From contig NZ_CP062252.1 in the NCBI RefSeq assembly GCF_014863605.1, positions 1-64,000 of the forward strand: 64,000 bases of DNA, in the 5' to 3' direction. The notes beneath the pieces are model-generated. The model was given only the letters and a program-made list of their open reading frames with translations, ran no database searches and had not been told where the DNA came from. Positions 1 through 30,538 of the stretch are shown piece after piece (within the stretch, counting starts at the first letter, position 1; the number at the start of each line of letters is the position of its first letter). The translations under genes were made by a program, and so were the position numbers. Origin of the DNA: Pseudomonas allokribbensis. GTDB lineage: Bacteria > Pseudomonadota > Gammaproteobacteria > Pseudomonadales > Pseudomonadaceae.

Positions 1-1524
1 GTGTCAGTGGAACTTTGGCAGCAGTGCGTGGAGCTTTTGCGCGAAGAGCTGCCAGCCCAACAATTCAACACCTGGATCCGTCCATTACAGGTCGAAGCCG
101 AAGGCGACGAGTTGCGTGTCTACGCACCGAACCGTTTTGTTCTGGACTGGGTCAACGAAAAGTACCTGGGGCGCGTCCTTGAACTGCTGGATGAGCATGG
201 CAACGGCCTGGCGCCGTCGCTCTCCTTATTAATAGGCAGCAAGCGCAGTTCTGCGCCGCGTGCTGCGCCGAACGCGCCGCTGGCTGCGGCCGCTGCATCG
301 CTGGCTCAAGCCAGTTCCGCGCCCGTCAGTGCTCCGGCACCCGCGCCGGCTCCAACCCCGGCCAAGCGCGCGACGCAAAAAACCGAGGAAGTCAGCGAAG
401 AGCCGTCCCGCGACAGCTTCGACCCGATGGCGGGCGCCGCCTCCCAGCAAGCGCCGGTGCGTGCCGAACAGCGCACGGTGCAGGTCGAAGGCGCGCTCAA
501 GCACACCAGCTACCTGAATCGCACCTTTACCTTCGAGAACTTCGTCGAAGGTAAGTCCAACCAGCTCGCCCGTGCGGCGGCCTGGCAAGTGGCGGATAAC
601 CCCAAGCACGGCTACAACCCGCTCTTCCTTTATGGTGGCGTGGGTCTGGGTAAGACGCACTTGATGCACGCGGTGGGTAACCACCTGTTAAAGAAGAACC
701 CGAATGCCAAGGTCGTGTACCTGCATTCCGAGCGTTTCGTGGCCGACATGGTCAAGGCGCTGCAACTGAACGCGATCAACGAGTTCAAGCGTTTCTACCG
801 TTCGGTGGACGCCCTGCTGATCGACGACATTCAGTTCTTCGCCCGCAAGGAACGTTCCCAGGAAGAATTTTTCCACACCTTCAACGCCCTGCTTGAAGGT
901 GGCCAGCAGGTCATTCTCACCAGTGACCGCTATCCGAAGGAAATCGAAGGCCTTGAAGAGCGCCTGAAATCCCGCTTCGGCTGGGGCCTGACGGTTGCCG
1001 TCGAGCCGCCGGAGCTGGAAACCCGCGTAGCCATCTTGATGAAGAAGGCCGACCAGGCCAAAGTCGAGTTGCCACACGATGCGGCGTTCTTCATTGCGCA
1101 GCGCATTCGCTCCAACGTCCGTGAGCTGGAAGGCGCGCTGAAACGCGTGATCGCCCACTCGCACTTCATGGGCCGCGACATCACCATCGAGTTGATTCGC
1201 GAATCCCTGAAAGACCTGTTGGCGTTGCAGGACAAACTGGTCTCTGTGGATAACATTCAGCGCACAGTCGCCGAGTACTACAAGATCAAGATTTCCGACT
1301 TGCTGTCCAAGCGCCGTTCGCGCTCGGTCGCTCGCCCGCGTCAGGTCGCCATGGCACTGTCCAAGGAACTGACCAACCACAGCCTGCCGGAAATCGGCGA
1401 TGTGTTTGGCGGTCGCGACCACACGACGGTGTTGCACGCCTGCCGCAAGATCAACGAACTTAAGGAATCCGACGCGGACATCCGCGAGGACTACAAGAAC
1501 CTGCTGCGTACACTGACCACTTGA
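1..1524 (+). CDS. dnaA: Chromosomal replication initiator DnaA
   Basis: DnaA binds DnaA boxes at oriC and opens the duplex to start replication. The 507-residue product has the full four-domain layout: an N-terminal oligomerisation domain (about 1-85), an Ala/Pro-rich linker (about 85-170), an AAA+ domain with Walker A GGVGLGKT (about 212-219) and Walker B LLIDDIQ (about 273-280), and a C-terminal DNA-binding domain with the signature [12 protein letters not shown] near residue 470. The start is GTG at the first base of the window, so its promoter and the expected rpmH-dnaA oriC lie just outside. A perfect reverse DnaA box sits inside the gene at 1245. dnaN follows 39 bp downstream. Confidence 0.98.
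1245..1253 (-). promoter_or_regulatory. Perfect DnaA box inside dnaA
   Basis: TGTGGATAA on the + strand, i.e. TTATCCACA on the - strand, a perfect match to the high-affinity DnaA box. It encodes part of a Val-Asp-Asn stretch of DnaA, so codon use could contribute, but it belongs to a run of 17 such sites in the first half of the window. Confidence 0.6.
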
Positions 1525-1563
1525 TGAACACCAGCGCAGCTTATTAAGGCAAGGGACTAGACC

Positions 1564-2667
1564 ATGCATTTCACCATTCAACGCGAAGCCCTGTTGAAAC
1601 CCCTGCAACTGGTCGCAGGCGTCGTCGAGCGCCGACAGACCTTGCCGGTACTGTCCAACGTGCTGCTGGTCGTCGATGGCCAGCAACTGTCGCTGACCGG
1701 TACCGACCTGGAAGTCGAGCTGGTCGGTCGCGTGCAACTCGAGGAGCCGGCTGAAACAGGTTCCATCACTGTGCCTGCGCGCAAGCTGATGGATATCTGC
1801 AAAAGCCTGCCGAACGATGCGCTGATCGATATCAAGGTCGACGAGCAGAAACTGGTGGTGAAAGCCGGCCGTAGCCGCTTCACCCTGTCGACCCTGCCGG
1901 CCAACGATTTCCCGACTGTGGAAGAAGGCCCGGGTTCGCTGACCACCAGCCTGGATCAAAGCAAGCTGCGTCGCCTGATCGAACGCACCAGTTTCGCCAT
2001 GGCCCAACAGGACGTGCGTTACTACCTCAACGGCATGTTGCTGGAAGTGTCGACCGGTGTGATCCGTGCCGTGGCCACCGATGGTCACCGTCTGGCAATG
2101 TGCTCGATGCAGGCCGACATCGGTCAGCAGGATCGCCATCAAGTGATCGTGCCGCGCAAAGGTATTCTCGAACTGGCGCGTCTGCTCACCGAGCCGGACG
2201 GCAACGTCAGCATCGTGCTGGGTCAGCACCACATCCGCGCGACCACCGGCGAATTCACCTTCACCTCGAAACTGGTCGACGGCAAGTTCCCTGACTACGA
2301 GCGCGTTCTGCCAAAGGGCGGCGACAAGCTGGTACTGGGTGATCGTCAGGCGCTGCGCGAAGCGTTCAGTCGTACCGCGATTCTGTCCAACGAGAAGTAC
2401 CGTGGCATCCGTCTGCAACTGGCCAACGGTCAGCTGAAGATCCAGGCGAACAACCCGGAACAGGAAGAAGCGGAAGAAGAAGTAGGCGTGGAATACAACG
2501 GCGGCTCCCTGGAAATCGGCTTCAACGTCAGCTATCTGCTCGACGTGCTGGGCGTGATGACCACCGAGCAGGTTCGCTTGATCCTGTCCGACTCCAACAG
2601 CAGTGCGCTGGTGCAAGAGTCCGACAATGACGATTCGGCTTACGTTGTCATGCCGATGCGTCTGTAA
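1564..2667 (+). CDS. dnaN: DNA polymerase III beta sliding clamp
   Basis: DnaN forms the dimeric ring that tethers polymerase III and repair polymerases to DNA. At 367 residues, the N-terminal MHFTIQREALLKPLQ and the C-terminal VVMPMRL tail are typical of gamma-proteobacterial clamps; the three repeated clamp domains fit the length. The ATG at 1564 follows AAGGGACTAGACC, a usable ribosome binding site. It sits in the classic dnaA-dnaN-recF-gyrB order, with recF starting 15 bp after the stop, which indicates cotranscription. Confidence 0.98.
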   Translation: MHFTIQREALLKPLQLVAGVVERRQTLPVLSNVLLVVDGQQLSLTGTDLEVELVGRVQLEEPAETGSITVPARKLMDICKSLPNDALIDIKVDEQKLVVKAGRSRFTLSTLPANDFPTVEEGPGSLTTSLDQSKLRRLIERTSFAMAQQDVRYYLNGMLLEVSTGVIRAVATDGHRLAMCSMQADIGQQDRHQVIVPRKGILELARLLTEPDGNVSIVLGQHHIRATTGEFTFTSKLVDGKFPDYERVLPKGGDKLVLGDRQALREAFSRTAILSNEKYRGIRLQLANGQLKIQANNPEQEEAEEEVGVEYNGGSLEIGFNVSYLLDVLGVMTTEQVRLILSDSNSSALVQESDNDDSAYVVMPMRL

Positions 2668-2681
2668 TCAGCTGACTCTGG

Positions 2682-6208
<3,527 letters not shown>

Positions 6209-6230
6209 TCCCGGCCGGCACCAACAAAAA

Positions 6231-6258
6231 GGCCAACGCATACGCGTTGGCCTTTTTT
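6231..6258 (+). terminator. Rho-independent terminator of the dnaA-gyrB operon
   Basis: GGCCAACGCATACGCGTTGGCC forms a nearly perfect hairpin followed by TTTTTT, 22 bp after the gyrB stop. The flanking A-run on the other side (CAACAAAAA) lets it also work for the oppositely oriented regulator gene that ends at 6271. Confidence 0.9.
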
Positions 6259-6270
6259 ATTACCTGCTAT

Positions 6271-6987
6271 TCACTCACCCGCCGCCACACTCTCCAACCG
6301 ATATCCATACCCATAAATCGTCAGCAACTGCCAACCCCGATCCGCTGTCAGCCCGAGCTTGTTGCGCAGGCGATAGATGTGGGTATCCAGCGGTCGTGAC
6401 GAGGCCATTTCTTCATGGGGCCAGAACCTTTCGTATAAATAGTCCCGTGACAGCGGCCGGCCGAGGTTGCTGAACAGGCAGTGCGCAAGCCGGTACTCAC
6501 GCTCGGTCATCATGATCGGCTTGCCTTCGCGGGTGACGGTCAGCTCGGCGTCGTCGAACACCAGATCGTTGAAACGCAGAACATTGGCCACGCTCGGGCG
6601 TTGATGGCTGTGCCGACGCAGCACGGCGGTGACTCGAGCCTTCAACTCGTTTGGGCGAAAAGGCTTGCTGACGTAATCGTCGGCCCCGGCGTTCAGGGCC
6701 TGGACGATATCGCTCTCGCCGTCACGACTGGTGAGCATGATGGCGGCCGGTGGCGCTTCCATGTGCTCTCGGGTCCAGCGCAGCAGCGCCAGGCCGGTGA
6801 GGTCGGGCAGTTGCCAGTCGAGGATCAGCAGGTCGAAGGTTTCCCGGCGCAGTTGCCGCAGCAGGTCTTCTCCGCGTTCGAAACTGTGCAGCGACCAGGG
6901 CTGTTCGCCGGCCTCGGCCATTTGTTGCAGGGTCTGCTCGACCCGGCGCAGTTCGGCGGGTTCATCGTCCAGTATCGCAACGCGCAT
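6271..6987 (-). CDS. OmpR/PhoB-family response regulator
   Basis: A 238-residue two-component regulator. The receiver domain (about 1-120) carries the acidic pair D7/D8, the phosphoacceptor D57 in LILDWQLPDL, a conserved T/S in MLTSRD and the Lys of VSKPFRPNEL. The C-terminal half is a winged helix with MTEREYRLAHCLF and a DTHIYRLRNKLG recognition region. It is divergent from the histidine kinase at 7154, its probable partner, with a 166-bp shared regulatory gap. The stimulus and targets cannot be told from sequence. The pair sits between gyrB and plsC, where PAO1 as I remember it has no such genes. Confidence 0.9.
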   Translation of the reverse strand: MRVAILDDEPAELRRVEQTLQQMAEAGEQPWSLHSFERGEDLLRQLRRETFDLLILDWQLPDLTGLALLRWTREHMEAPPAAIMLTSRDGESDIVQALNAGADDYVSKPFRPNELKARVTAVLRRHSHQRPSVANVLRFNDLVFDDAELTVTREGKPIMMTEREYRLAHCLFSNLGRPLSRDYLYERFWPHEEMASSRPLDTHIYRLRNKLGLTADRGWQLLTIYGYGYRLESVAAGE

Positions 6988-7153
6988 ACGCGGGATTCCT
7001 TGTCGCTTGGGTAATGGGTGGTCGACACCGGCGGTTCGACCAAAGCAGTGAAAGTAAGCGGCACACCATGGGTCGAGCCGCTATGATTCTTCGGGTCTAC
7101 GTCCTCAGACCTGTCGCCTATGAAACCATTCAACCCGCCCTGCCCTGTTTTCC

Positions 7154-8695
7154 ATGATTAACCGACGCCGCCACGAAAGCCGTGTGCAAAGTCAGGTTCA
7201 ACGCCTGTTTCGGCAACTGGTGCGCGAGTGGGTGTGGATAAGTCTAGTGCTGTTGCCGCTGACTGCATTGTTGTCGTGGCGTGCGCAGGTCAATCTGCAT
7301 GACCCGGCGCCCGTCACCGGCGCGATGTTGTCAGTCGCTCTGGTGGCTTGCGTGTTGGGGTTACTGTTGTGGCGACCACGTCTGGCGATCTGGGTGACGC
7401 TGGGCGGGATTGCCTGCGTGCTGCTGACCAGTGCCGGCCTGGCTGAAATGCGGCGTTGGTGGTCGCCGACGCCTGCGGCGCTGGGCATGCTGTTCGGCTA
7501 TCTGATCTGGAACTGGCGGCGCCTGAGTGTGGTGCTCACCTACTTCGGCTGGGAGCTATCGCGGCTGGACAGTGAGCCGAAGGTGTTTCCCGAACGCCGC
7601 CGGGCGCCCTTTTCCAGCGCCGACCGTTTGCAGGGACAGATCATGGCCCTTGAACAAGCCATGAGCCGCACCCGCGATACTCGCCGCTTCATCGCCGATG
7701 GGTTGGAGTATCTGCCGGTGGCAACGCTGATCAGCGATCCTCGAGGACAGGTCTTGTTGGGCAATCGCAAGGCCCGGAGTCTGTTCGATCATAATCTGGT
7801 GGGCGAAGACGTCCTCGATCAGCTGGCAAGCCTGGGTTATCCAGAGTTGTCCACAGAGCCACGCCCGCCGCTATCTGAGCTGCCTCTGCTGGAGTTTCGT
7901 GACCACAAGGAGCGCAGCCTGCGCCTCGAACGTGCGGCGTTGTTGCCGGTGGACGGTGACACGCCGATTGGCTGGTTGTTGAGCCTGACCGACCTGAGTG
8001 CCGAGCGCGCCGCCGAAGAACAGCGCGGTGTGCTGCTGCGCTTTCTGTCCCATGACTTGCGAGCGCCGCATTCAGCGATCCTCGCCCTGCTCGACGTCCA
8101 CCGGCATCAGGCTGGAACGGATTCACCGCTGTTCGAGCAGATCGAACGCCAAGTGCGTCGAGCGCTGGAACTCACCGATGGATTCGTTTTACTGGCCCGG
8201 GCCGAATCCGAGGCCTATCAGTTCCAGCCGAGTCTGTTTGCGATGCTGGTGATGGACGTACTGGACCAGGCACTGCCCATCGCCCAGCAAAAGCGTATCG
8301 AACTGCTGAACGATATGGATGAGCAATCCCAGGAGCGTCTGGTGCTTGCAGATCAGGGGCTGCTGACCCGGGCGCTTTTCAATCTGCTGGAAAACGCGAT
8401 CAAGTACAGCCCGGCCGGGTCTACGGTCAGGTTGTGCGTTCGATGCCACGATGACTGGCTGCATTGCGAACTGACCGATCAGGGCAAAGGTATCGGGGCT
8501 GAAGACCTGCCTGATCTGTTCAGCCAGTACCGCCGTTTTTCTTCGGCTCAAGGCATCGATGGCGTGGGATTGGGGCTGTCGATGGTCAAGGCTGTGGTGG
8601 ATCACCATGGTGGGCGGATCGAATGCATCAGCGTCATCGATCAGGGCACCACATTCCGCCTTGAGCTGCCGCTGATCGCTGAAGAGCAGGCATAA
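7154..8695 (+). CDS. Membrane-bound sensor histidine kinase
   Basis: A 513-residue sensor kinase. The N-terminus has about four hydrophobic segments (roughly residues 25-45, 55-75, 78-98, 108-125) with almost no periplasmic loop, so it may sense in the membrane. A PAS-like segment (about 175-285) precedes the H box SHDLRAPHS (His about 300), the N box NLLENAIKYSPAG, the G1 box DQGKGIG and G2 box GVGLGLSMVKAVV. It is divergent from and presumably phosphorylates the regulator at 6271-6987. No good ribosome binding site precedes the ATG at 7154, so the start is less certain. A DnaA box lies inside the 5' end. Confidence 0.88.
   Translation: MINRRRHESRVQSQVQRLFRQLVREWVWISLVLLPLTALLSWRAQVNLHDPAPVTGAMLSVALVACVLGLLLWRPRLAIWVTLGGIACVLLTSAGLAEMRRWWSPTPAALGMLFGYLIWNWRRLSVVLTYFGWELSRLDSEPKVFPERRRAPFSSADRLQGQIMALEQAMSRTRDTRRFIADGLEYLPVATLISDPRGQVLLGNRKARSLFDHNLVGEDVLDQLASLGYPELSTEPRPPLSELPLLEFRDHKERSLRLERAALLPVDGDTPIGWLLSLTDLSAERAAEEQRGVLLRFLSHDLRAPHSAILALLDVHRHQAGTDSPLFEQIERQVRRALELTDGFVLLARAESEAYQFQPSLFAMLVMDVLDQALPIAQQKRIELLNDMDEQSQERLVLADQGLLTRALFNLLENAIKYSPAGSTVRLCVRCHDDWLHCELTDQGKGIGAEDLPDLFSQYRRFSSAQGIDGVGLGLSMVKAVVDHHGGRIECISVIDQGTTFRLELPLIAEEQA
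7233..7241 (-). promoter_or_regulatory. Perfect DnaA box in the histidine kinase gene
   Basis: TGTGGATAA, reverse of TTATCCACA, within the codons of the first membrane segment (Val-Trp-Ile-Ser). A perfect DnaA-box match and one of the origin-proximal series. Confidence 0.55.
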
Positions 8696-8700
8696 AAAAA

Positions 8701-8839: not shown

Positions 8840-8848
8840 TTATCCACA
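8840..8848 (+). promoter_or_regulatory. Perfect DnaA box in an AT-rich intergenic gap
   Basis: TTATCCACA lies between the kinase terminator and the end of plsC. The surrounding gap (8725-8853) is clearly AT-richer than its neighbours and also holds the weaker relatives TTATGCACC near 8741 and TTTATCAGC near 8760. This is the intergenic box closest to dnaA in the window. Confidence 0.65.
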
Positions 8849-9715: not shown

Positions 9716-10249
9716 CTAGTTGTGGATAAGTTCTGCGGCAATCGCCGCCAGATCGTCAAAAATCAGGGTGCCGACCGGCAAGGTCTTGGCCTGAGTCTTT
9801 TCGCCTTTCCCGGTCTTTACCAAAACGGGCTGTGAATCGACGGCTTTGGCGGCCTCCAGGTCACCAAGGCTGTCGCCGACGAACCAGACATTCGTCAGCG
9901 CCACGTTGTAGTGCTGCGCGATGGTTTTCAACATTCCCGGTTTCGGCTTGCGGCAATCGCAACCCTCGTCCGGCCCATGCGGGCAATACACGATCAGCCC
10001 GACTTCACCGCCCTGCTCTGCCACCAGTTCGCGCAGGCGCGCATGCATGGCATCGAGGGTGGCGAGGTCGTAGTAGCCGCGAGCAATGCCCGACTGGTTG
10101 GTGGCGACCGCCACCGTCCAGCCGGCCTTGCTCAACTGCGCAATCGCTTCGATCGAGCCGGGCAGCGGAATCCACTCCTCCACCGACTTGATGTAAGCGT
10201 CGGAGTCGTAATTGATCACTCCGTCCCGATCGAGAATCAGCAGTTTCAA
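9716..10249 (-). CDS. gmhB: D-glycero-beta-D-manno-heptose-1,7-bisphosphate 7-phosphatase
   Basis: GmhB removes the C7 phosphate in the ADP-heptose pathway for LPS inner core. The HAD signature LLILDRDGVIN is at the N-terminus and a zinc loop with CPHGPDEGCDCRKPKPG in the middle. The start is TTG at 10249, preceded by GAGGG with 7-nt spacing, giving 177 residues; an earlier TTG at 10255 is too close to that ribosome binding site. It follows glyS by 10 bp and is probably cotranscribed with glyQS. Its last codons and stop region overlap the DnaA box at 9721. Confidence 0.92.
   Translation of the reverse strand: MKLLILDRDGVINYDSDAYIKSVEEWIPLPGSIEAIAQLSKAGWTVAVATNQSGIARGYYDLATLDAMHARLRELVAEQGGEVGLIVYCPHGPDEGCDCRKPKPGMLKTIAQHYNVALTNVWFVGDSLGDLEAAKAVDSQPVLVKTGKGEKTQAKTLPVGTLIFDDLAAIAAELIHN
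9721..9729 (-). promoter_or_regulatory. Perfect DnaA box at the gmhB 3' end
   Basis: TGTGGATAA on the + strand. On the gmhB strand it reads TTATCCACA across the codons for Leu-Ile-His-Asn just before the stop. A perfect match. Confidence 0.55.
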
Positions 10250-13345: not shown

Positions 13346-13903
13346 ATGCCACGCTGCTTTTGGTGCAACGAAGATCCGCTGTACATGGCTTACCACGATC
13401 AGGAGTGGGGCACGCCGCTACGCGATGCGCAGGGATTGTTCGAGTTGCTTTTGCTCGAAGGGTTCCAGGCCGGGCTTTCGTGGATCACCGTGCTGCGTAA
13501 ACGCGAGCGGTATCGCGAGGTGTTGTTCGGCTTCGACGTACAGCGCGTGGCGCAGATGAGCGACGCAGAAATCGATGAATTGATGCTCGATCCGGGGATC
13601 ATCCGCAATCGCCTCAAGCTCAATGCCGCCCGGCGCAATGCCCAGGCGTGGCTGGCGCTGGAGGATCCGGTGGCCTTCCTCTGGTCGTTTGTGGATAACC
13701 GGCCGGTGATCAATCATTTCAAGGATCGCAGCGAAGTCCCGGCGATCACCCCGCAAGCCGTGGCCATGAGCAAAGGCCTGAAAAAGGCTGGTTTCACCTT
13801 CGTCGGTCCGACCATTTGCTATGCGCTGATGCAGGCCTCGGGGATGGTCATGGATCACACTCAGGACTGCGACCGCTACGCGCAGCTGGTCAACGCCGGT
13901 TAG
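13346..13903 (+). CDS. tag: DNA-3-methyladenine glycosylase I
   Basis: It excises 3-methyladenine from alkylated DNA. The ATG at 13346 follows CTGGAG and gives 185 residues beginning [20 protein letters not shown], with the Cys and His residues that form the family's zinc site, the EWG motif, and the C-terminal [16 protein letters not shown] and HTQDC segment. The region upstream in the same frame overlaps glyQ and is not coding. A DnaA box lies inside the gene at 13690. Confidence 0.94.
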
Positions 13904-14846: not shown

Positions 14847-14878
14847 TGTGGATAACCTGACAACACGGGTTATCCACA
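14847..14878. repeat. Inverted DnaA-box pair in the intergenic gap
   Basis: TGTGGATAACC and GGTTATCCACA form an 11-bp perfect inverted repeat around a 10-base centre, filling most of the 51-bp gap between two convergent genes. Each arm contains a perfect DnaA box. It could fold as an RNA hairpin, but no U-tract follows on either strand, so a simple terminator explains it poorly. Confidence 0.8.
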
Positions 14879-14882: not shown

Positions 14883-15197
14883 TCACGGCTTCTGCCGATC
14901 CAGCTTCTTCAGAAACACCGTCATTTCCTTCTCCGCCTGCTTGTCGCCATGGGCCCGGGCCGCTTCCAGCCCCTGCTCCCACGCCTGCCGCGCAGCCGCC
15001 AGATCACCCAGCGCCAGGTGCGCCTTGCCCAACAGTTTCCATGCTGCCGAGTACTTCGGATCGAAGCCGACACAACGCTGCAAATGCTCGGTCGCCTTCG
15101 CGTTCTCCCCCAGATCCAGATAGCCCTTGCCCAGGCCGAAGCGCAGCAATGAGTTATCCACACCCTTGGCGAGCATTTTTTCCAGGGATTCGATCAT
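14883..15197 (-). CDS. Small TPR-repeat protein
   Basis: A 104-residue soluble protein made almost entirely of two or three tetratricopeptide repeats, for example LGENAKATEHLQRCVGFDP and LGDLAAARQAWEQGLEAA. No signal peptide or catalytic motif is seen, so it is probably a protein-interaction module. It lies 20 bp downstream of trkA on the same strand and matches the PA0015 position. A DnaA box at 15154 falls in its 5' part. Confidence 0.8.
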   Translation of the reverse strand: MIESLEKMLAKGVDNSLLRFGLGKGYLDLGENAKATEHLQRCVGFDPKYSAAWKLLGKAHLALGDLAAARQAWEQGLEAARAHGDKQAEKEMTVFLKKLDRQKP

Positions 15198-15217: not shown

Positions 15218-16594
15218 TCAGAAGAAGCTCAATCCCACGTGGAACAGCTTCTCCACGTCGCGAATGTGCTTTTTATCCACAAGGAACAGAATCACATGGT
15301 CGCCTGCGGCAATCACTGTGTCGTCATGGGCGATGATCACTTCTTCATCACGGATGATCGCGCCGATGGTGGTCCCCGGTGGCAGGGCGATGTTTTCGAT
15401 GGCCTTGCCGATGACCTTGCTCGACTTCGAATCACCATGGGCCACCGCTTCGATGGCTTCCGCCGCACCCCGGCGCAAGGAGTGCACGCTGACGATATCG
15501 CCGCGCCGCACGTGGGCCAGCAAGGTGCCGATGGTCGCCAGTTGCGGGCTGATGGCGATGTCGATGTCACCACCCTGGATCAAGTCGACGTAGGCCGGGT
15601 TGTTGATGATCGTCATCACCTTCTTCGCGCCCAGACGCTTGGCCAGCAGCGACGACATGATGTTGGCTTCGTCATCGTTGGTCAGGGCGAGGAAGATGTC
15701 CGCGTCGGCGATGTTCTCTTCCAGCAGCAGGTCGCGATCTGAAGCGCTGCCCTGCAACACCACGGTGCTGTCGAGGGTATCGGAGAGATAACGGCAGCGC
15801 GCCGGGTTCATCTCGATGATCTTCACCTGGTAACGGCTTTCGATGGCCTCGGCCAGCCGCTCACCGATCTGCCCGCCGCCGGCAATGACGATGCGCTTGT
15901 AGGTTTCGTCGAGGCGGCGCATTTCGCTCATCACGGCGCGAATGTTCTCACGGGCGGCGATGAAGAAGACTTCGTCGTCGGCCTCGATCACCGTGTCGCC
16001 CTGAGGAAGAATCGGTCGGTCGCGGCGGAAAATCGCCGCCACTCGCGTTTCCACATTCGGCATGTGCTCGCGCAACTGGCGCAGTTGCTGACCCACCAGC
16101 GGCCCGCCGTAGTAAGCGCGCACCGCGACCAGTTGCGCCTGGCCCTCGGCGAAGTCGATCACCTGCAAGGCGCCGGGGTGCTGGATCAGACGCTTGATGT
16201 AGTTGGTGACCACTTGCTCGGGGCTGATCAGCACGTCGACCGGGATCGCTTCGTTCTGGAACAGTTGTTCCTCGCGGGTCAGGTACGACGCTTCGCGTAC
16301 CCGGGCGATCTTGGTCGGGGTGTGGAACAGGGTGTGGGCAACTTGGCAGGCGACCATGTTGGTTTCGTCGCTGTTGGTCACCGCCACCAGCATGTCGGCG
16401 TCGTCGGCACCGGCCTGACGCAGAATGTTCGGCAACGAGCCACGGCCCTGCACGGTACGGATATCGAGACGGTCGCCGAGGTCGCGCAGACGGTCGCCAT
16501 CGGTGTCGACCACGGTGATGTCGTTGGCTTCGCTGGCCAGATGTTCAGCCAGCGAACCGCCGACCTGCCCTGCACCGAGGATGATGATTTTCAA
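15218..16594 (-). CDS. trkA: Trk system potassium uptake protein TrkA
   Basis: The cytoplasmic NAD-binding regulatory subunit of the Trk K+ channel complex. The 458 residues show the duplicated RCK layout: a first Rossmann motif [14 protein letters not shown] at the N-terminus and a second, [13 protein letters not shown], near residue 237, each followed by a TrkA-C domain. It starts 22 bp after the rsmB stop, so a def/fmt/rsmB/trkA run is plausible. The last codons contain a degenerate parS-like sequence at 15231 and a DnaA box at 15273. Confidence 0.96.
15231..15246. other. Degenerate parS-like sequence
   Basis: AATCCCACGTGGAACA matches the perfect parS at 3733 in 13 of 16 positions, with an intact right half and an intact CCACGTGG core. 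It lies at the trkA 3' end. Pseudomonas genomes do carry secondary, imperfect parS sites near the origin, so weak ParB binding is possible. Confidence 0.35.
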
Positions 16595-20667: not shown

Positions 20668-20676
20668 TTATCCACA
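20668..20676 (+). promoter_or_regulatory. Perfect DnaA box upstream of dprA
   Basis: TTATCCACA lies in the 79-bp gap before dprA, 46 bp upstream of its start codon, where the dprA promoter would be expected. It could act as a DnaA-responsive regulatory site, or only as part of the general origin-proximal enrichment. Confidence 0.6.
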
Positions 20677-20721: not shown

Positions 20722-21822
20722 ATGATGATGCCTGTCTGTACGCCGGTTTCCCCTGCGGAACTGGAAGCGCGTTTGCGCCTGCACCGTTTGCCGGAAATCG
20801 GCCCGAAACGTTTTGCCCGGTTGCTCGAAGCGTTCGGCTCCGCCTCCAAGGCCATCAGTGCGCCGGCCAGTGCCTGGCGTTCGCTGGGTTTGCCGGTGGC
20901 GAGCGCCGAAGCTCGCCGTTGTCCTGAAGTGCGTGACGGCGCGAGCCGCGCATTGGCCTGGCTAGAGCGCCCGGGCCAGCATTTGCTGATGCTCGACCAG
21001 CCGGACTACCCGGCATTACTGGCGCAGATTGCCGATCCGCCACCGCTGCTGTTCGTTGCCGGTGACCCGCTGATCCTGGAAAAACCTCAGCTGGCGATGG
21101 TCGGCAGTCGCCGCGCCTCACGTCCGGGCATGGACACCGCCACGGCGTTTGCCCGCAGCCTGGCCGGAGCCGGTTTCGTCATCACCAGTGGCCTGGCGTT
21201 GGGCATCGATGCCGCCGTGCATCAAGCCGCGCTCGACGTCGGCGGGCAAACCGTCGGGGTGCTGGGCACTGGCCTGGAAAAATTTTATCCACAGCGCAAT
21301 CGGCGGCTGGCGGACACGATGATTGCCTCTGGCAGTGCGGTGATTTCGGAGTTTCCACTGGACGCCGGGCCGACGGCGAGCAACTTCCCCAGGCGCAACC
21401 GGATCATCAGCGGTTTATCCCTCGGCGTACTGGTGGTCGAGGCCAGTGTGGCCAGCGGTTCGTTGATCACCGCGCGACTGGCGGCGGAACAGGGTCGTGA
21501 GGTCTATGCGATTCCGGGCTCGATCCATCACCCCGGCGCGCGCGGTTGCCATCAACTGATCCGCGATGGCGCGGTGCTGGTGGAAACCATCGAGCACATC
21601 CTCGAGGCCCTGCGTGGCTGGCAGCACTTGTCGGTATCCACGACTACACCGGCTACGGACAATCCGTTGCTGCGCCTGCTGCACGCGGCGCCGCACACCA
21701 GCGAGGGCTTGGCCGACAGCAGTGGCTGGGCGTTGCCAAAAGTACTGGCGGCATTGACCGAACTGGAGATGGAGGGCCGCGCCGTGTGCGAAAACGGCCG
21801 CTGGTTTGCGCGGGTAAGCTAG
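20722..21822 (+). CDS. dprA: DNA-processing protein DprA
   Basis: DprA protects incoming single-stranded DNA and loads RecA during transformation. The 366 residues contain an N-terminal SAM/HhH-like region, the Rossmann-fold DprA core with MVGSRRASRPGMDTA, TSGLALGIDAAVHQ and FPRRNRIISGLS, and a C-terminal winged-helix segment. Three in-frame ATGs start at 20722; the first follows AAGGATGATCC and was chosen. A perfect DnaA box lies inside the gene at 21285 and another just upstream. Confidence 0.95.
   Translation: MMMPVCTPVSPAELEARLRLHRLPEIGPKRFARLLEAFGSASKAISAPASAWRSLGLPVASAEARRCPEVRDGASRALAWLERPGQHLLMLDQPDYPALLAQIADPPPLLFVAGDPLILEKPQLAMVGSRRASRPGMDTATAFARSLAGAGFVITSGLALGIDAAVHQAALDVGGQTVGVLGTGLEKFYPQRNRRLADTMIASGSAVISEFPLDAGPTASNFPRRNRIISGLSLGVLVVEASVASGSLITARLAAEQGREVYAIPGSIHHPGARGCHQLIRDGAVLVETIEHILEALRGWQHLSVSTTTPATDNPLLRLLHAAPHTSEGLADSSGWALPKVLAALTELEMEGRAVCENGRWFARVS
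21285..21293 (+). promoter_or_regulatory. Perfect DnaA box in dprA
   Basis: TTATCCACA within the codons for Phe-Tyr-Pro-Gln. One of the 17 perfect boxes. Confidence 0.55.
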
Positions 21823-21876
21823 GTTTTACATTGAAGATCGGTAAACTGCGCAAAACCTGTTTTCGGAGAGTTTTTC

Positions 21877-22434: not shown

Positions 22435-22447
22435 GATCCGAAGAGCC

Positions 22448-22477: not shown

Positions 22478-22483
22478 TCGGTT

Positions 22484-23461: not shown

Positions 23462-23486
23462 CTGCCTACTCCTTGGGATGTTCTGA

Positions 23487-24524
<1,038 letters not shown>

Positions 24525-24533
24525 GGATTTCTG

Positions 24534-25355
24534 ATGGATCGTTACGTCGTTTTCGGTAACCCGATCGGCCACAGCAAGTCGCCGATGATTCACAAGCTGT
24601 TCGCCGAACAGACCGGGCAGAGCCTCGACTACAGCACCCTGCTGGCACCGCTGGACGATTTTTCCGGCTGCGCCACGGCGTTTTTCCAGGACGGTCGCGG
24701 CGCCAACGTGACCGTGCCGTTCAAGGAAGACGCCTATCGCCTGGCCAACAGCCTGACCGCTCGTGCCCAGCGCGCGGGTGCGGTGAACACCTTGAGCAAA
24801 CTCGCCGACGGCAGCCTGCTCGGCGATAACACCGACGGTGCCGGACTGGTGCGGGACCTGACGGTCAACGCCGGGTTCAGCCTCACCGGCAAACGCATTC
24901 TGCTGCTCGGTGCCGGTGGCGCGGTGCGCGGTGCGCTGGAGCCATTGCTGGCGGAGAAACCGGCCTCGGTGATCATCGCCAACCGCACGGTGGACAAGGC
25001 CGAGCTACTGGCCGAACTGTTCTGTGATCTGGGGCCGGTGTCGGCCAGCGGTTTCGACTGGCTGCGCGAGCCCGTGGACGTGATCATCAACGCCACCTCT
25101 GCCAGCCTCACCGGCGACGTGCCGCCGATTGCGCCAAGCCTGATCGAGCCGGGCAAGACCCTGTGCTACGACATGATGTACGGCAAGGAACCGACCGCGT
25201 TCTGCCGCTGGGCCAGCGAGCACGGCGCGGGCGTGGTGATGGACGGGTTGGGCATGCTGGCCGAGCAGGCGGCGGAGGCGTTCTTCCTGTGGCGCGGAGT
25301 GCGTCCGGACACTGCGCCGGTTCTGGCTGAATTGCGTCGGCAGTTGGCGCTGTAA
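24534..25355 (+). CDS. aroE: Shikimate dehydrogenase
   Basis: NADPH-dependent reduction of 3-dehydroshikimate in aromatic amino acid synthesis. The 273 residues begin [20 protein letters not shown] with the shikimate-binding S-K-S segment, then [12 protein letters not shown] with the catalytic Lys, the NADP-binding [14 protein letters not shown] and NRTVDKA, and [11 protein letters not shown] near the end. The SD is AGGA in TGAGGATTTCTG. It converges on the SulP gene with only 7 bp between stops. Confidence 0.97.
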
Positions 25356-25362
25356 GGCACCT

Positions 25363-26931
25363 TCAGTCCTCGAAGCGGATCGGGCATTTCTCCGGTCCTT
25401 CGAGTTTGCGCAATTCCTCCACCACCTGCGGTCGCGCCTGACGCAAGGTCAGGCTGCGATCCTGGCGCAGCAGGCGCCGGGCCTCCTGATGCAGCATTTC
25501 CACACCGGAATAGTCGATGAAGTTGATCTGCTGCGCCTCGATCACCACCCGCGCGCCGTGCATCCGTTGCAGGCGCACTTGCAGGTAGTGGCTGGCGCCG
25601 AAAAAGATCGAGCCGCCGACCCGTAGCACATCGTCTTCGCCATCGCGCCAATGCTGCACTCTCGGCTGCGAAGTGCGCTTGAGGTAGAAAAACAGCGAGG
25701 CCAGCACGCCGGCATAAATGGCTGTCTGCAATTCCAGCAGCAAGGTGGCGACGCAGGTCAGGCCCATCACCACGAACTCTGCCCGGCTGACCCGCAACAG
25801 CGCACGAATGCCGCGATGATCCACCAGTCCCCAGGCGATCAACAGAATGCTGCCGGCCATGGCCGGAATCGGAATGTGCGCGATCAGCCCGGCACCGAAA
25901 ATCGCGAACAACGCCACCCACAACGCCGAAAACACCCCGGCCAGCGGCGAACAGGCCCCGGCCTCATAGCTCAGCCCGGAACGGGTGAACGAGCCGGCGG
26001 ACAATGATCCCGAAAAGAACGCCCCGACAATGTTCGAAAGACCCTGAGCGCGGACTTCCTGATTGGCATCGAGCAACTGTTGCGAGCGTGCGGCAATCGA
26101 GCGGGCAATCGACAGGCTGGTGACCAACCCGAGCATACCCACCGCCACGGCGCTGGGCAGCAGGCGCAGGACCAGATCCATATCCAGCGGCAACCCGCTG
26201 AACGGCGGCAGACGCCCGACAAAAGCGCTGACCAACTGAACATGGCCGAACATCGCCGGCCACAGCCACACCACCAGGCTGCCGAGCACCAAGGTCATCA
26301 ACAGCGTCGGCCAACGCGGCAGCCATTGTTTGAGCAGCGCACCGATCACCACTGTGGCGACACCGAGGGCCAGTGACGGTTTATCCACAGCCCCGAGATG
26401 ACGCAGCAAATCCATCAGGCTGGCCAGCGCCGTCGCCTTGGCCGGCAGATCCAGCCCCAGCAGGTTCGGCAACTGGCCGATGGCAATCACCACCGCCGCC
26501 CCGAGGGTGAAACCCAGCACCACCGAGTGCGAGACGAAATTCACCAGCGCGCCGAAGCGCAACAGGCCGAGCAACCACTGGAAAATCCCCGCGAGGAAGG
26601 TCAGCAGCAGGATAAGGGTGATGTAGTCCTGCGATGCCGGCACGGCCAGTGGGCTGACACTGGCGAACAGCACAATCGAAATCGCCGCCGTCGGCCCGCA
26701 GATCAGATGCCACGACGAGCCCCACAGGCAGGCGATCAGTACCGGGATGATCGCGGCATAGAGGCCGTATTCGGGTGGGAGACCGGCGATCAGGGCGTAG
26801 GCAATCGACTGGGGCAACGCGAGAATCGCGCCGCTGAGGCCGACGACCAGATCCCGCCCGACGCTGGCGCGGGTCTGCCGGGGCAGCCAGGTCAGGAAGG
26901 GAAACAGTGAGCGGCGGCTGGGGAGGGCCAT
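25363..26931 (-). CDS. SulP-family anion transporter with STAS domain
   Basis: An inner-membrane transporter of sulfate, bicarbonate or related anions. The start is ATG at 26931, preceded by GAGAGGAT, giving 522 residues. About ten to twelve hydrophobic segments cover residues 30-410, opening with the SulP-type region LSGAILALPQSIAYALIAGL. A cytoplasmic STAS domain occupies about 425-510 (INFIDYSGVEMLHQEA). It lies beside choline sulfatase genes, which release sulfate, so sulfate movement is a reasonable guess (PA0029 position). A DnaA box at 26381 is inside the gene. Confidence 0.9.
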   Translation of the reverse strand: MALPSRRSLFPFLTWLPRQTRASVGRDLVVGLSGAILALPQSIAYALIAGLPPEYGLYAAIIPVLIACLWGSSWHLICGPTAAISIVLFASVSPLAVPASQDYITLILLLTFLAGIFQWLLGLLRFGALVNFVSHSVVLGFTLGAAVVIAIGQLPNLLGLDLPAKATALASLMDLLRHLGAVDKPSLALGVATVVIGALLKQWLPRWPTLLMTLVLGSLVVWLWPAMFGHVQLVSAFVGRLPPFSGLPLDMDLVLRLLPSAVAVGMLGLVTSLSIARSIAARSQQLLDANQEVRAQGLSNIVGAFFSGSLSAGSFTRSGLSYEAGACSPLAGVFSALWVALFAIFGAGLIAHIPIPAMAGSILLIAWGLVDHRGIRALLRVSRAEFVVMGLTCVATLLLELQTAIYAGVLASLFFYLKRTSQPRVQHWRDGEDDVLRVGGSIFFGASHYLQVRLQRMHGARVVIEAQQINFIDYSGVEMLHQEARRLLRQDRSLTLRQARPQVVEELRKLEGPEKCPIRFED

Positions 26932-26967
26932 GGATCCTCTCGGGTGAAATTTTGCGCATTGTACGCA

Positions 26968-27014
26968 GATCGTTCCCACGTCGAGACGTCGAACGCGCCT
27001 GGGTAGGAACGATC
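26968..27014. repeat. Inverted repeat, degenerate REP-type element
   Basis: GATCGTTCC and GGAACGATC are 9-bp arms about 29 bases apart in the 93-bp gap between choX and the SulP gene. GATCGTTCCCACG at the left edge is the recurrent start of an interspersed repeat common between genes of P. fluorescens-group genomes. It may also stall or terminate choX transcription. Confidence 0.5.
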
Positions 27015-27024
27015 CGTGTGAGGG

Positions 27025-27942
27025 CTAGAGTTTCGCTTTGACGGCCGGCAACGCGTCTTTTCCATCCACGGTCTTCACACCATCGAGCCACTTGTCCAAC
27101 ACCGCCGGATTCGCCTTGATCCACGCCTTCACCGCATCGGCATTGCTGACCTTCTTGTTCACCACCTCGGCCATGATGCTGTTCTCCATCTCCTGAGTGA
27201 ACGAAAGATTGGTCAGCAATTTACCCACATTCGGACAGGCCTCGGCGTAGCCCTTGCGGGTCAGGGTGTAGACGCTGCCGGTGTCGCCGAAGTATTTCTC
27301 GCCGCCCTTGAGGTAATGCATTTTCAGCTGCACGTTCATCGGGTGCGGGGTCCAGCCGAGGAAGGTGACGAATTTCTGCTTCTTCACCGCCCGCGAGACT
27401 TCAGCGAGCATGGCCTGCTCACTGGACTCGATCAGCTTCCACTGGCCGAGGTCGAAGTCGTTCTTCTTGATGATCTCTTGCAGCGAGATGTTCGCCGGCG
27501 CGCCAGAGCCGATGCCGTAGATCTTCTTCTCGAACTTGTCCGCGAATTTGTTCAGGTCGGAAAAGTTATGCACACCCGCATCCCACACGTAATCCGGCAC
27601 GGCCAGGGTGAATTCGGTGCCGTCGAGGTTCTTCGCCAGTTGCGTGACGTCGCCGGTGGCCACGAACTTGTCGTAGAAGCCCTGCTGCGCCGGCATCCAG
27701 TTGCCGAGGAACACGTCGACCTGACCGTCCTTCAAGCCGCCGAAGGTGATCGGCACCGCGAGCGTGTCGACCTTGGCCTTGTAGCCCATGCCATCCAGCA
27801 GAAACCCGGTGATGGCGTTGGTCGCGGCGATGTCGCTCCAGCCGGGGTCGGCCATTTTCACCGTGTCGCAGCTCTCGGCGAACGCGGATGCGCTGCCCAG
27901 TGCCAGCAGGCTGATCGTCACGATTGTGGATAACTTGACCAT
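27025..27942 (-). CDS. choX: Choline-type ABC substrate-binding protein (ChoX family), orphan
   Basis: A periplasmic binding protein for choline or a close relative. The start is ATG at 27942 after AAGGGGAAG, giving 305 residues with signal peptide MVKLSTIVTISLLALGSASA. The aromatic cage of the family is visible: Trp34 in ADPGWSD, Trp81 in FLGNW, Tyr117, and the Trp of FLGWTPHPMN. No permease or ATPase gene is adjacent. In pseudomonads, orphan binding proteins can use the shared Cbc transporter core. It directly follows betC (16 bp), so choline or choline-O-sulfate is the likely ligand. Confidence 0.87.
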   Translation of the reverse strand: MVKLSTIVTISLLALGSASAFAESCDTVKMADPGWSDIAATNAITGFLLDGMGYKAKVDTLAVPITFGGLKDGQVDVFLGNWMPAQQGFYDKFVATGDVTQLAKNLDGTEFTLAVPDYVWDAGVHNFSDLNKFADKFEKKIYGIGSGAPANISLQEIIKKNDFDLGQWKLIESSEQAMLAEVSRAVKKQKFVTFLGWTPHPMNVQLKMHYLKGGEKYFGDTGSVYTLTRKGYAEACPNVGKLLTNLSFTQEMENSIMAEVVNKKVSNADAVKAWIKANPAVLDKWLDGVKTVDGKDALPAVKAKL

Positions 27943-27958
27943 GGACTTCCCCTTAACG

Positions 27959-29473
27959 TTATTGGTTTTGGCAGGGTTGTGGATAACGGGCTTTGCGCTC
28001 CAGGTCATCGAGGTCGATGTGGTTGCGCATGTACTGCTGACTGGCATCCACCAGCGGCTGGTGGTCCCAGCTCTTCAGCTTGCCGAGGGTCAGCGCCTCG
28101 GCGACGAAGCGCCGGCGCCGCTGGCTTTCGAGCACCTTGCGGTGGATCGCCGGGATGTCCCACTTGGCCCGCGATTCGGCGAGAAAATCGTCGAAAAGCT
28201 GGCGATGTTGCGGTGATTGGCTGAGTTCTTCCTGCTCACGTGGATCGTTATCCACATCGAAGAGTAAGCAAGGGTCGGTTTCGCTGTAGATAAATTTGAA
28301 GGCGCCACGCCGGATCATCATCAGCGGGCTGACGGTGCCTTCGGCCATGTATTCGCCGAACACTTCGTCATGACCGCCCTGCCCTTGCAGGTGCGACACC
28401 AGCGAGCGGCCGTCCAGCGGCAGATTCGCTTCCAGGCTGCCACCCGCCAGTTCCACGAAGGTCGGCAACAGGTCGACGGTGGACACGGCGGCGCCTACAC
28501 GGCCTGCATTGAACTGACCGGGCGCACTTATCAACAGGGGCACCCGGGCAGCCATTTCGAACCAGTGCATTTTGTACCAGAGGCCTTTTTCCCCAAGCAT
28601 GTCACCGTGGTCGCCGGAGAACACGATGATGGTGTCGTCCGTCAGCCCGCATTCGTCGAGGGTTTGCAGGAGTTTGCCGACGTTGGCGTCGATATAGCTG
28701 CACGCACCGAAGTATGCCCGGCGCGCGTCGCGAATCTTATCCACAGGCAGCGGCTTGTTCCACAGGTCGTAGACCTTGAGCAAACGCTGGGAATGCGGAT
28801 CGAGTGAATGCTGATCCGGCGTTGTCGGAAGCGGGATATCCGCATCGTCGTACAAATCCCAGAACGCCTTGGGAATCGTGTACGGGTCGTGCGGGTGAGT
28901 CATCGACACGGTCAGGCAGAACGGCTGGTCGCCGTCCTCTCGAATGTGATCGAACAGGTACTGCTGAGCCTTGAACACCACCTCTTCGTCGAAATCGAGC
29001 TGGTTGGTCCGCACGCACGGCCCGGCCTGCAATACCGAAGACATGTTGTGATACCAGCTCGGCCGCACATCGGGCTCATCCCAGTTCACCGCCCAGCCGT
29101 AGTCGGCCGGATAGATGTCGCTGGTCAGGCGCTCTTCGTAGCCGTGCAGTTGATCCGGCCCACAGAAATGCATCTTGCCCGACAGCGCGGTGCGATAGCC
29201 GAGGTGGCGCAGGTAATGGGCGTAGGTTGGAATGTCGGCGGGGAAATCGGCGGCATTGTCGTAGGCGCCTATCTTGCTCGGCAACTGGCCACTGACCAGG
29301 GTGAAACGCGACGGCGCGCACAGCGGGCTGTTGCAATAAGCGGCGTCGAACACCACGCCTTGTTCGGCGAGGCGGCTGAGATTCGGCAGTTTGATCGGCG
29401 ACGGGCCGTAGAACGGCAACATTGGCGCGGCCATTTGATCGGCCATGATGAAGAGAATGTTCTTGCGCTTCAT
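27959..29473 (-). CDS. betC: Choline sulfatase
   Basis: It hydrolyses choline-O-sulfate to choline and sulfate, feeding glycine betaine synthesis and sulfur supply. The start is ATG at 29473 (MKRKNILFIMADQMAAPMLP), giving 504 residues, the usual BetC size. The sulfatase signature is CAPSRFTLVSGQLP, where the first Cys is converted to formylglycine; metal ligands are expected in IMADQ and in FSGDHGDMLGEKGLW. It is transcribed divergently from the LysR gene and upstream of choX. Confidence 0.95.
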   Translation of the reverse strand: MKRKNILFIMADQMAAPMLPFYGPSPIKLPNLSRLAEQGVVFDAAYCNSPLCAPSRFTLVSGQLPSKIGAYDNAADFPADIPTYAHYLRHLGYRTALSGKMHFCGPDQLHGYEERLTSDIYPADYGWAVNWDEPDVRPSWYHNMSSVLQAGPCVRTNQLDFDEEVVFKAQQYLFDHIREDGDQPFCLTVSMTHPHDPYTIPKAFWDLYDDADIPLPTTPDQHSLDPHSQRLLKVYDLWNKPLPVDKIRDARRAYFGACSYIDANVGKLLQTLDECGLTDDTIIVFSGDHGDMLGEKGLWYKMHWFEMAARVPLLISAPGQFNAGRVGAAVSTVDLLPTFVELAGGSLEANLPLDGRSLVSHLQGQGGHDEVFGEYMAEGTVSPLMMIRRGAFKFIYSETDPCLLFDVDNDPREQEELSQSPQHRQLFDDFLAESRAKWDIPAIHRKVLESQRRRRFVAEALTLGKLKSWDHQPLVDASQQYMRNHIDLDDLERKARYPQPCQNQ

Positions 29474-29587
29474 GTGATCGCGGCATTCCATAGTGAATAT
29501 TTATGCGACATTGCTGCGATCGAGCATGGATTCCCCGCAATATCCGGTAAAGCCCGCGCCGGACAATGACTAGGATAAGCACAGCTT

Positions 29588-30538
29588 ATGTATGACGCCC
29601 TCGGTGATTTGTCGCTCGACCTGCTGCGCGCCTTCGAGGCAGCAGCCCGTCATCGCAGTTTTACCGCGGCGGCGGTGGAGCTTGGGACCACCCAGCCGGC
29701 GATCAGTCAGCAGATCAAACGGCTGGAGGAACAGCTGGGGACGCGGCTGTTCGACCGGATCTACCGAGGCATTGAGTTGACCGAGGTCGGTTCAATTCTT
29801 TTCGAGCAAGTCACCCTCGGTTTGCAGAATATCGACGCAGGATTGAGCGCGATCAGCGCGCAACAGCAACATGAGGTGCTGCAGGTCGCCACCGACTTCG
29901 CCTTCGCTGCGTACTGGCTGATGCCGCGTCTGCATCGTTTTCACGAAGCCAATCCGCAGGTCGATGTCAGCCTGGTCACCAGCGAGCGCAATCACAATAT
30001 GCTGCGCCCGGATATCGACGTTGCCGTGCTGTTCGGCGACGGTCGCTTCAAACAGGGTGAAAGTCATTGGCTGTTCAGCGAAGAAGTGTTCCCGGTGTGC
30101 AGCCCGCAATTGCTCAAGGATCGCGCCCGGCCCTTGCCGGCCCAGGCTTTGCTGGAGTTTCCGCTGCTGCATCTGCGCGGCGAGAACAGCAGCAACTGGT
30201 TCGACTGGAGCGGCCTGTTCCGCGAACTCGGTATCAATACGCCGCCGGCCCCGGGGCAACTGCGTTTCGATAACTACACCTTGCTGATCCAGGCGGCGAT
30301 TGGCGGTCAGGGTGTGGCCATCGGCTGGCGGCACCTTGTGGATAACTTGCTGGCGCAGGGTCTGTTGTGCCGGCCGATTGCCGAGACCACCCTCTCCCGC
30401 CTCGGTTATTACGTGGTGCTGCCGCAGCGCAAACGCCGAGGGGCGTTGATTCAGCAGTTTGTCGATTGGTTGATGGCCGAGCAGGCCAGCAGCGCGCAGT
30501 CGCTGACGGGAATGGAGTTGCCTTCGATCGCCGTTTGA
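29588..30538 (+). CDS. LysR-type regulator of choline sulfate use
   Basis: A 316-residue LysR protein: N-terminal winged helix (about 8-66) with AFEAAARHRSFTAAAVELGTT and QPAISQQIKRLEEQLGTRLF, then a periplasmic-binding-like effector domain. It is divergent from betC with a 114-bp gap, the usual layout of a LysR regulator and its target. The likely ligand is choline-O-sulfate or choline (inference). A DnaA box at 30337 lies near the 3' end. Confidence 0.9.
   Translation: MYDALGDLSLDLLRAFEAAARHRSFTAAAVELGTTQPAISQQIKRLEEQLGTRLFDRIYRGIELTEVGSILFEQVTLGLQNIDAGLSAISAQQQHEVLQVATDFAFAAYWLMPRLHRFHEANPQVDVSLVTSERNHNMLRPDIDVAVLFGDGRFKQGESHWLFSEEVFPVCSPQLLKDRARPLPAQALLEFPLLHLRGENSSNWFDWSGLFRELGINTPPAPGQLRFDNYTLLIQAAIGGQGVAIGWRHLVDNLLAQGLLCRPIAETTLSRLGYYVVLPQRKRRGALIQQFVDWLMAEQASSAQSLTGMELPSIAV
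30337..30345 (-). promoter_or_regulatory. Perfect DnaA box in the LysR gene
   Basis: TGTGGATAA in codons for Leu-Val-Asp-Asn. It is the last perfect box found in the window; none appears in the following 33.6 kb. Confidence 0.55.

What the first reader, a model, noticed from the sequence alone, without database searches (positions are those of the whole stretch)
1245..30345. Strong, one-sided enrichment of perfect DnaA boxes in the origin-proximal 31 kb
TTATCCACA or its reverse occurs 17 times at 1245, 7233, 8840, 9721, 13690, 14847, 14870, 15154, 15273, 20668, 21285, 26381, 27925, 27978, 28248, 28737 and 30337, and not once perfectly in 30,346-64,000. Chance expectation on both strands of 31 kb is about 0.24 at equal base use, and lower in a GC-rich genome. 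Many copies sit inside codons, often Val-Asp-Asn or Leu-Ser-Thr frames, so selection for the DNA word rather than protein is likely. An extended DnaA-binding zone flanking oriC could titrate DnaA, organise the origin domain or tune initiation timing. I do not know of a description of this in the group.
Basis: partly seen in the sequence, partly recalled or inferred. Interest (0 to 1): 0.82.

Follow-up and report, generated by a model that had tools for sequence, protein, structure and literature searches.

The report
Origin-centred reservoir of DnaA binding sites
In this Pseudomonas chromosome the exact landing site of the replication starter protein DnaA is packed around the replication origin on both sides and thinly scattered over the origin-near 40% of the chromosome, which looks like a built-in sponge that could stop the cell from starting replication twice.

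Summary
The 17 perfect DnaA boxes are real. "One-sided" is an artefact: the window starts at dnaA, and the last 36 kb of the 6,565,027-bp chromosome hold 18 more. Genome-wide there are 152 boxes against 16 reversed words, in three tiers: a core (-36..+31 kb) with 35 boxes against 0.14 for permuted words; a plateau to about +/-1.25 Mb at ~44/Mb; and the distal 60% at ~2.5/Mb, near background. Codon shuffling does not reproduce it (core 20 vs 1.04). Boxes stay in place above control in 15 of 20 relatives; the five relatives with the fewest boxes do not keep them. Three single-contig relatives show similar profiles (two lists capped). A unique intergenic box array at -0.54 Mb resembles datA in layout. 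Most likely function: DnaA titration that locks the origin after firing, in a genome without a SeqA hit. DnaA occupancy and function are untested. A milder version is published for E. coli and Salmonella (PMC12371093); nine searches of the held library showed no such report for Pseudomonas.

The parts
1245..1253 (-). perfect DnaA box inside dnaA (antisense; Ser-Val-Asp-Asn)
   Evidence: perfect in 15 of 20 relatives, degraded in G064, G060, G013, G028, G027
7233..7241 (-). perfect DnaA box inside the histidine kinase gene 7154-8695
   Evidence: perfect in 6 of 6 relatives aligned here
8840..8848 (+). perfect DnaA box, intergenic
   Evidence: perfect in every relative aligned here
9721..9729 (-). 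perfect DnaA box, coding (gmhB-type gene, C-terminal end)
13690..13698 (-). perfect DnaA box in a low-scoring ORF; poorly conserved (perfect in G029 and G016 only)
14847..14855 (-). perfect DnaA box, intergenic; with 14870, 15154, 15273 a 4-box cluster
14870..14878 (+). perfect DnaA box, intergenic, inverted partner of 14847
15154..15162 (+). perfect DnaA box, coding (Gly-Val-Asp-Asn)
15273..15281 (+). perfect DnaA box, coding (Leu-Val-Asp-Lys)
20668..20676 (+). perfect DnaA box, intergenic
   Evidence: perfect in every relative aligned here
21285..21293 (+). perfect DnaA box, coding (Tyr-Pro-Gln frame)
26381..26389 (+). perfect DnaA box, coding antisense in the gene 25363-26931
27925..27933 (-). 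perfect DnaA box, intergenic; with 27978, 28248, 28737 a 4-box cluster
27978..27986 (-). perfect DnaA box, coding (Tyr-Pro-Gln frame)
28248..28256 (+). perfect DnaA box, coding antisense (Val-Asp-Asn)
28737..28745 (+). perfect DnaA box, coding antisense (Val-Asp-Lys)
30337..30345 (-). last perfect DnaA box of the right half of the core (Leu-Val-Asp-Asn)
   Evidence: the next box is at 171,146
1..1524 (+). dnaA; domain IV nearly identical to that of 1j1v (E. coli, recalled), incl. the RPRQ and GGRDHTTV stretches
3733..3748 (.). 16-bp palindrome TGTTCCACGTGGAACA (parS-like, name recalled) inside the core zone

Best explanation
The chromosome carries an origin-centred DnaA titration system. About 35 perfect DnaA boxes within ~36 kb on both sides of oriC would be duplicated within about the first minute of a replication round, so the number of sites jumps at once and free DnaA falls below the firing threshold: an immediate lock against re-initiation. 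About 107 more boxes over the rest of the origin-proximal +/-1.25 Mb are duplicated over the next ~25 min and keep DnaA bound while the cell makes more. The unique array at -0.54 Mb may add a datA-like site. Shown: the site distribution, its non-random origin, selection on the word, conservation in part of the genus, similar profiles in three relatives, no SeqA hit, Hda present, a DnaA domain IV like the solved one. Inferred: that DnaA occupies the boxes and that the occupancy times initiation.
For: Density tiers 486, ~44 and ~2.5 boxes per Mb with a step at 1.25 Mb outside the core. Permuted-word density is alike in the three zones (2.1, 2.0 and 2.2 per Mb) and so is GC (0.603, 0.607, 0.606), so no composition gradient. 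TTATCCACA ranks first among 9-mers of the core against the distal sample, and near-boxes such as TTTTCCACA rise too. Codon shuffles, position conservation, third positions. Similar profiles in G017, G020 and G005. No SeqA (the E. coli control rings), no Dam over the cut-off, Hda present. Domain IV match. [quoted passage not shown] Toy model with this genome's box positions, 3% noise, 1-min eclipse and an assumed C period of 60 min: no interval shorter than half a doubling time among 164, 162, 163, 162 and 164 (doubling times 30, 45, 60, 90, 120 min); the same number of boxes spread uniformly gave 0.49, 0.47, 0.35, 0.19 and 0.04.
Against: No binding data. Relatives G013, G027, G028, G060 and G064 keep the boxes no better than control words, and G014, G027, G028 and G054 have less than three times the reversed-word count, so the reservoir is not obligatory for the genus. 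In G060 and G027 third positions inside box sites are less conserved than in the rest of the genes (17 of 48 and 9 of 31). In the noise-free toy model uniform boxes were regular or nearly so, so the advantage there depends on noise and on assumed parameters. The abrupt plateau edge of this genome and the thin zone between core and plateau (none at 31-171 kb on the right; 6 in 36-200 kb on both arms) are not predicted by simple titration. Core boxes are ~6 times denser between genes than inside genes, so part may serve promoters. The strand preference reported for E. coli is absent.
Confidence: 0.6

Rival explanations
1. Origin-domain marking: the boxes are read by DnaA, or by another protein that knows the same word, to organise or mark the origin half of the chromosome, as Noc and SlmA sites do (recalled).
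For: Plateau with an abrupt edge near +/-1.25 Mb and near-background level beyond it in this genome; thinning near 1.35 Mb on the left arm of G017 and near 1.4-1.46 Mb on the right arm of G005.
Against: The word is exactly the high-affinity DnaA box, four copies lie in oriC, and no other reader is known to me; no orientation preference (41 with, 44 against the fork). In G020 a smooth fall fits better than a step.
Confidence: 0.17
2. Transcription: the boxes are DnaA-controlled operators of origin-near genes.
For: 14 of 35 core boxes are intergenic although ~10% of the core is non-coding; the left flank also has an intergenic excess (0.111 vs 0.039 per kb). A promoter-type box pair exists elsewhere.
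Against: 21 of 35 core and 41 of 54 flank boxes lie inside genes; the right flank shows no intergenic excess (0.029 vs 0.041 per kb); a common link of the genes other than distance from oriC was not seen, but was not tested.
Confidence: 0.1
3. By-product of composition, codon usage, chance, or of old core genes near the origin.
For: Distal regions of Pseudomonas chromosomes hold more accessory genes (recalled), which I did not control gene by gene.
Against: Permuted words 0.144, max 5 of 1679 in the core; codon shuffles 1.04 vs 20; alike GC and permuted-word density in core, flank and distal sample; conservation above local control in 15 of 20 relatives.
Confidence: 0.03

Closest known systems
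Origin-proximal DnaA-box accumulation of E. coli and Salmonella (Olivi et al. 2025, PMC12371093; outline with abstract, passages and section 6 seen)
   Same: Excess of DnaA boxes around oriC against uniform and permuted-word nulls, persisting without oriC, conserved between strains, proposed for titration
   Different: There a broad rise of about two standard deviations in 10-centisome windows with degenerate motifs; here perfect boxes only, a compact +/-36-kb core ~240 times above permuted words, a stepped 2.5-Mb plateau, and no strand preference
Theoretical origin-proximal titration (Berger and ten Wolde 2022, PMC9640692; passages seen)
   Same: The arrangement that the authors name as the one that would let titration avoid premature re-initiation at high growth rate
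   Different: They set it aside as not consistent with E. coli experiments; this chromosome appears to have it
E. coli datA (layout recalled; its role named in the PMC9640692 passages)
   Same: Unique intergenic cluster of DnaA boxes roughly half a megabase from oriC
   Different: The array here has perfect boxes, four in one direction at 182, 182 and 150 bp; no IHF site was looked for and no activity is known
B. subtilis DnaA-box clusters near oriC (recalled)
   Same: Extra DnaA binding outside oriC in the origin region
   Different: As recalled, a handful of discrete clusters, not tens of single boxes plus a chromosome-scale plateau; not compared here

Membership tests
Origin-proximal DnaA titration zone (as in PMC12371093) | DnaA boxes over-represented near oriC against permuted words | tested here: met
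   35 vs mean 0.144, none of 1679 permutations reaches it
Origin-proximal DnaA titration zone (as in PMC12371093) | Enrichment persists without oriC | tested here: met
   31 of the 35 core boxes are other than the four oriC boxes
Origin-proximal DnaA titration zone (as in PMC12371093) | Conserved among related genomes | tested here: met
   above control in 15 of 20 relatives, not in 5; similar profiles in G017, G020, G005
Origin-proximal DnaA titration zone (as in PMC12371093) | Preference for the lagging strand (reported for E. coli; I do not take it as defining) | tested here: not met
   41 with and 44 against fork movement of 85 boxes in -800..+464 kb, oriC left out
Origin-proximal DnaA titration zone (as in PMC12371093) | DnaA is bound to the chromosome in vivo | not testable with these tools
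   needs ChIP-seq, DAP-seq or single-particle tracking
datA | Unique origin-near intergenic locus with several DnaA boxes | tested here: met
   one match in the own genome; 5 boxes in 820 bp
datA | IHF site between the boxes (recalled) | not tested
   no IHF search was run
datA | Stimulates DnaA-ATP hydrolysis | not testable with these tools
   biochemistry needed; so not filed as datA

The most novel reading that the evidence does not exclude
A large part of Pseudomonas evolved an origin-centred titration machine as its main once-per-cycle lock in place of SeqA sequestration: a core of ~35 perfect boxes duplicated within a minute, a bounded 2.5-Mb reservoir, and a dedicated array at about -0.54 Mb, with the set gained or lost lineage by lineage.
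Probability: 0.4. Interest if true: 0.85.

Novelty: new variant of a known kind. Interest (0 to 1): 0.7.

Why it matters
Whether titration alone can time replication has long been argued, mostly in E. coli, where several mechanisms overlap. Theory says that titration avoids premature re-initiation at high growth rate only if the sites sit near the origin (PMC9640692, passages). This chromosome appears to have that arrangement with no SeqA hit, and relatives with few boxes exist for comparison. That makes the question directly testable by silent recoding. It also suggests that some codons near the origin of these bacteria are held by a replication word.

Tried and rejected
Rejected: chance and composition, codon usage, one-sidedness, an orientation-dependent motif of Chi or KOPS type (no strand bias), a known RNA family for the -0.54 Mb array (Rfam, no match at E up to 1), a tandem array by TRF at that locus (none). 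The maximal-order Markov control was uninformative. A noise-free toy model did not separate own from uniform boxes for doubling times of 40 min or more (uniform CV 0.05 at 30 min), and its 'core removed' variant misfired at all five doubling times, in part because it left few near-origin boxes; I then reran with noise and report both. The core limits (-36..+31 kb) and the length bins were set after seeing the data. tabulates 42 of the 80 dnaA loci, picked by me, mostly named taxa with long flanks; 38 were left out. One search counts 20 core and 42 flank coding boxes against 21 and 41, because genes were binned by their start. Gene calls come from my own script, not from an annotation. The place lists are capped, so only the arms that they seem to cover on both strands were used. 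The displaced core of G005 and the array distances from dnaA are read by eye from place numbers, not aligned. The B. subtilis, Noc, SlmA, parS and datA-layout comparisons are from memory. Literature: nine searches of the held library; no paper on the chromosome-wide DnaA-box distribution of Pseudomonas stood out in the listings; most subscription papers are not held.
Full report
What the window is. The window is the first 64 kb of a single-contig chromosome of 6,565,027 bp. It starts at the GTG of dnaA, followed by dnaN, recF, gyrB, a two-component system, a gmhB-type gene, glyS and glyQ. The closest named dnaA loci are Pseudomonas (records very near the own genome may be left out there). oriC lies upstream of dnaA, at the end of the record, with four perfect boxes at -339, -222, -160 and -75.

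The observation. All 17 boxes are at the stated places and there is none between 30,346 and 64,000 (0.09 expected, 0 of 100 shuffles reaching 17). The chromosome holds 152 boxes (79 forward, 73 reverse) against 16 reversed words. All 152 positions were recovered by combining the 100 places listed with the fetched stretches; the total agrees.

Two-sided core. The last 36 kb of the record hold 18 boxes, so the zone is -36 to +31 kb with 35 boxes. The 1679 permuted words average 0.144 there, with a maximum of 5. TTATCCACA ranks first among the 9-mers of the core against a 400-kb distal sample. Among its 27 one-mismatch neighbours, ATATCCACA (6 in the core), TTTTCCACA (8), TTACCCACA (3) and TTATTCACA (3) are also dense in the core, the last two on small counts. 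Flanking bases are not neutral: the base before the box is G in 53 of 89 and A in 2, and the base after it is G or A in 72 of 89.

Plateau and distal part. Outside the core a step at 1.25 Mb fits better than an exponential fall for this genome (lnL -1319.3 vs -1340.2): 44.1 boxes per Mb inside and 2.5 outside. For G020 the exponential fits better (-755.3 vs -760.2), so the sharp edge is not general. The fetched flanks (1197 kb) hold 54 against 2.42 for permuted words (max 30), and the distal sample (400 kb) 1 against 0.887. Permuted-word density and GC are alike in the three zones. Density is lower between core and plateau (36-200 kb, 6 boxes, 18 per Mb) than in 200-1000 kb (45-60 per Mb).

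Selection on the word. Synonymous codon shuffling within genes gives 1.04 boxes (max 5 of 200) against 20 in core genes, and 3.04 (max 9) against 42 in flank genes. Position conservation was measured in 20 relatives against neighbouring words in the same codon phase, oriC left out (sums). Six at 88-94% identity (G016, G034, G095, G033, G011, G046): 130 of 144 aligned boxes perfect against 4653 of 11752 control words (40%). Nine others (G029, G005, G059, G017, G032, G020, G091, G003, G057): 113 of 169 against 4278 of 14379 (30%). Five (G064, G060, G013, G028, G027): 9 of 61 against 937 of 6944 (13%), no excess; these are also the poorest in boxes of the 20. Third codon positions inside boxes are more often identical than in the rest of the same 14 genes at p < 0.01 in 9 of 20 relatives (e.g. 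G095 53 of 54 vs 0.714); in G060 (17 of 48) and G027 (9 of 31) they are less often identical.

Relatives. In 99 genomes of the genus, 95 have at least three times as many boxes as reversed words; the exceptions are G014, G027, G028 and G054 (my reading). In the family sample of 99 genomes, the genera g195 and g198 are similarly rich, while g2, g191 and g192 have far fewer. Among 232 genomes of the class, this genome has the largest excess over the reversed word (136; next 70), though a few with lower counts reach higher ratios (my reading). Within about 10 kb of dnaA, the six Pseudomonas loci have 7-17 boxes, two Stutzerimonas 4-5, Chromohalobacter and Salinicola 5, six enterics 1-2 (42 of 80 loci tabulated). 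Single-contig relatives with other record starts look alike: G017 has 61 boxes in the left 0.05-1.4 Mb and 7 in the next 1.9 Mb; G020 has 69 of 84 in the origin-near 40%. In G005 the DNA after the dnaA-gyrB block does not align and the region is low in GC; 13 boxes stand at 45-68 kb (dnaA place) with spacings that resemble those of the own 9-30 kb zone, as if about 36 kb of inserted DNA had pushed the right half of the core outward. This is read from place numbers, not aligned.

The array at -0.54 Mb. Chromosome 6,027,225-6,027,893 (L164 2198-2866) lies between an oxidoreductase-like gene and an etfB-like gene (names by eye). It carries five perfect boxes, four in one direction at 182, 182 and 150 bp, in related contexts of some 35-50 bp that are closest in the second and third of these (GCGAACA, two bases, box, GAAGCGCCAACAGA). 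The query has one match in the own genome and matches in 94 of 99 genus genomes, in many of them only in the gene half. All 10 relatives fetched keep four or five boxes. By eye, it lies about 0.5-0.65 Mb upstream of dnaA in 19 genomes with both hits on one contig, about 1.1 Mb upstream in G029, and on the other arm at about 0.33-0.54 Mb in G015, G018, G020 and G065. No Rfam family fits.

Mechanism. DnaA domain IV aligns with few changes to 1j1v (E. coli by recall), with identical RPRQ and GGRDHTTV stretches, and the review PMC4285127 lists TTATCCACA as the high-affinity box of P. putida (passages). No SeqA was found, a weak Dam-type hit is below the cut-off (45.8 vs 114.85 bits), and Hda is present (289 bits). 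With an assumed C period of 60 min, 23% of boxes are duplicated after 1 min and 86% after 20 min, against 2% and 34% if uniform. In a toy titration model with 3% noise and a 1-min eclipse, this distribution gave no interval below half a doubling time at any of five doubling times; uniform boxes gave fractions of 0.49, 0.47, 0.35, 0.19 and 0.04, and core boxes spread over the plateau 0.49, 0.45, 0.39, 0.36 and 0.26. Without noise, uniform boxes were regular or nearly so. [quoted passage not shown] coli experiments (passages).

Verdict. Observation confirmed, one-sidedness corrected, selection on the word supported, function inferred. New variant of a known kind: a compact, perfect-box, origin-centred reservoir that many Pseudomonas genomes have and some lack.

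Noticed in passing
L164 2198-2866 (chromosome 6,027,225-6,027,893): Unique conserved intergenic array of five perfect DnaA boxes, four in one direction spaced 182, 182 and 150 bp; datA-like in layout, function unknown.
   Followed up: partly
chromosome 1,889,263-1,889,285 (L261 1264-1286): Palindromic pair of perfect boxes with a 5-bp spacer just upstream of a small ORF (DUF1232-like by eye); the same 14-bp offset pair appears in the lists for G017, G020, G057, G374 and for genomes of other families (G224, G312).
   Followed up: partly
chromosome 312,576-312,619: Inverted box pair 35 bp apart inside a recQ-like gene (by eye); pairs with 35-36 bp offset recur in the lists for G005, G017, G020, G237 and G312.
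   Followed up: partly
window 30,346-64,000 and on to 171,146: A 140-kb box-free gap follows the right core; the G005 list shows a similar 134-kb gap beyond its displaced boxes (2,013,068-2,146,977). Unexplained.
   Followed up: partly
G391 C1 141,182-150,010 and G399 C1 141,306-147,614: One perfect DnaA box per 630-bp period (15 and 11 in a row), apparently a tandem repeat that multiplies DnaA boxes; the place of dnaA in these two genomes was not checked.
   Followed up: no
G005 C1 about 2,170,000-2,208,000; G059 after its dnaA-gyrB block: Unaligned DNA of low GC with 1 or no box directly after the dnaA-gyrB block, apparently inserted next to the origin.
   Followed up: partly
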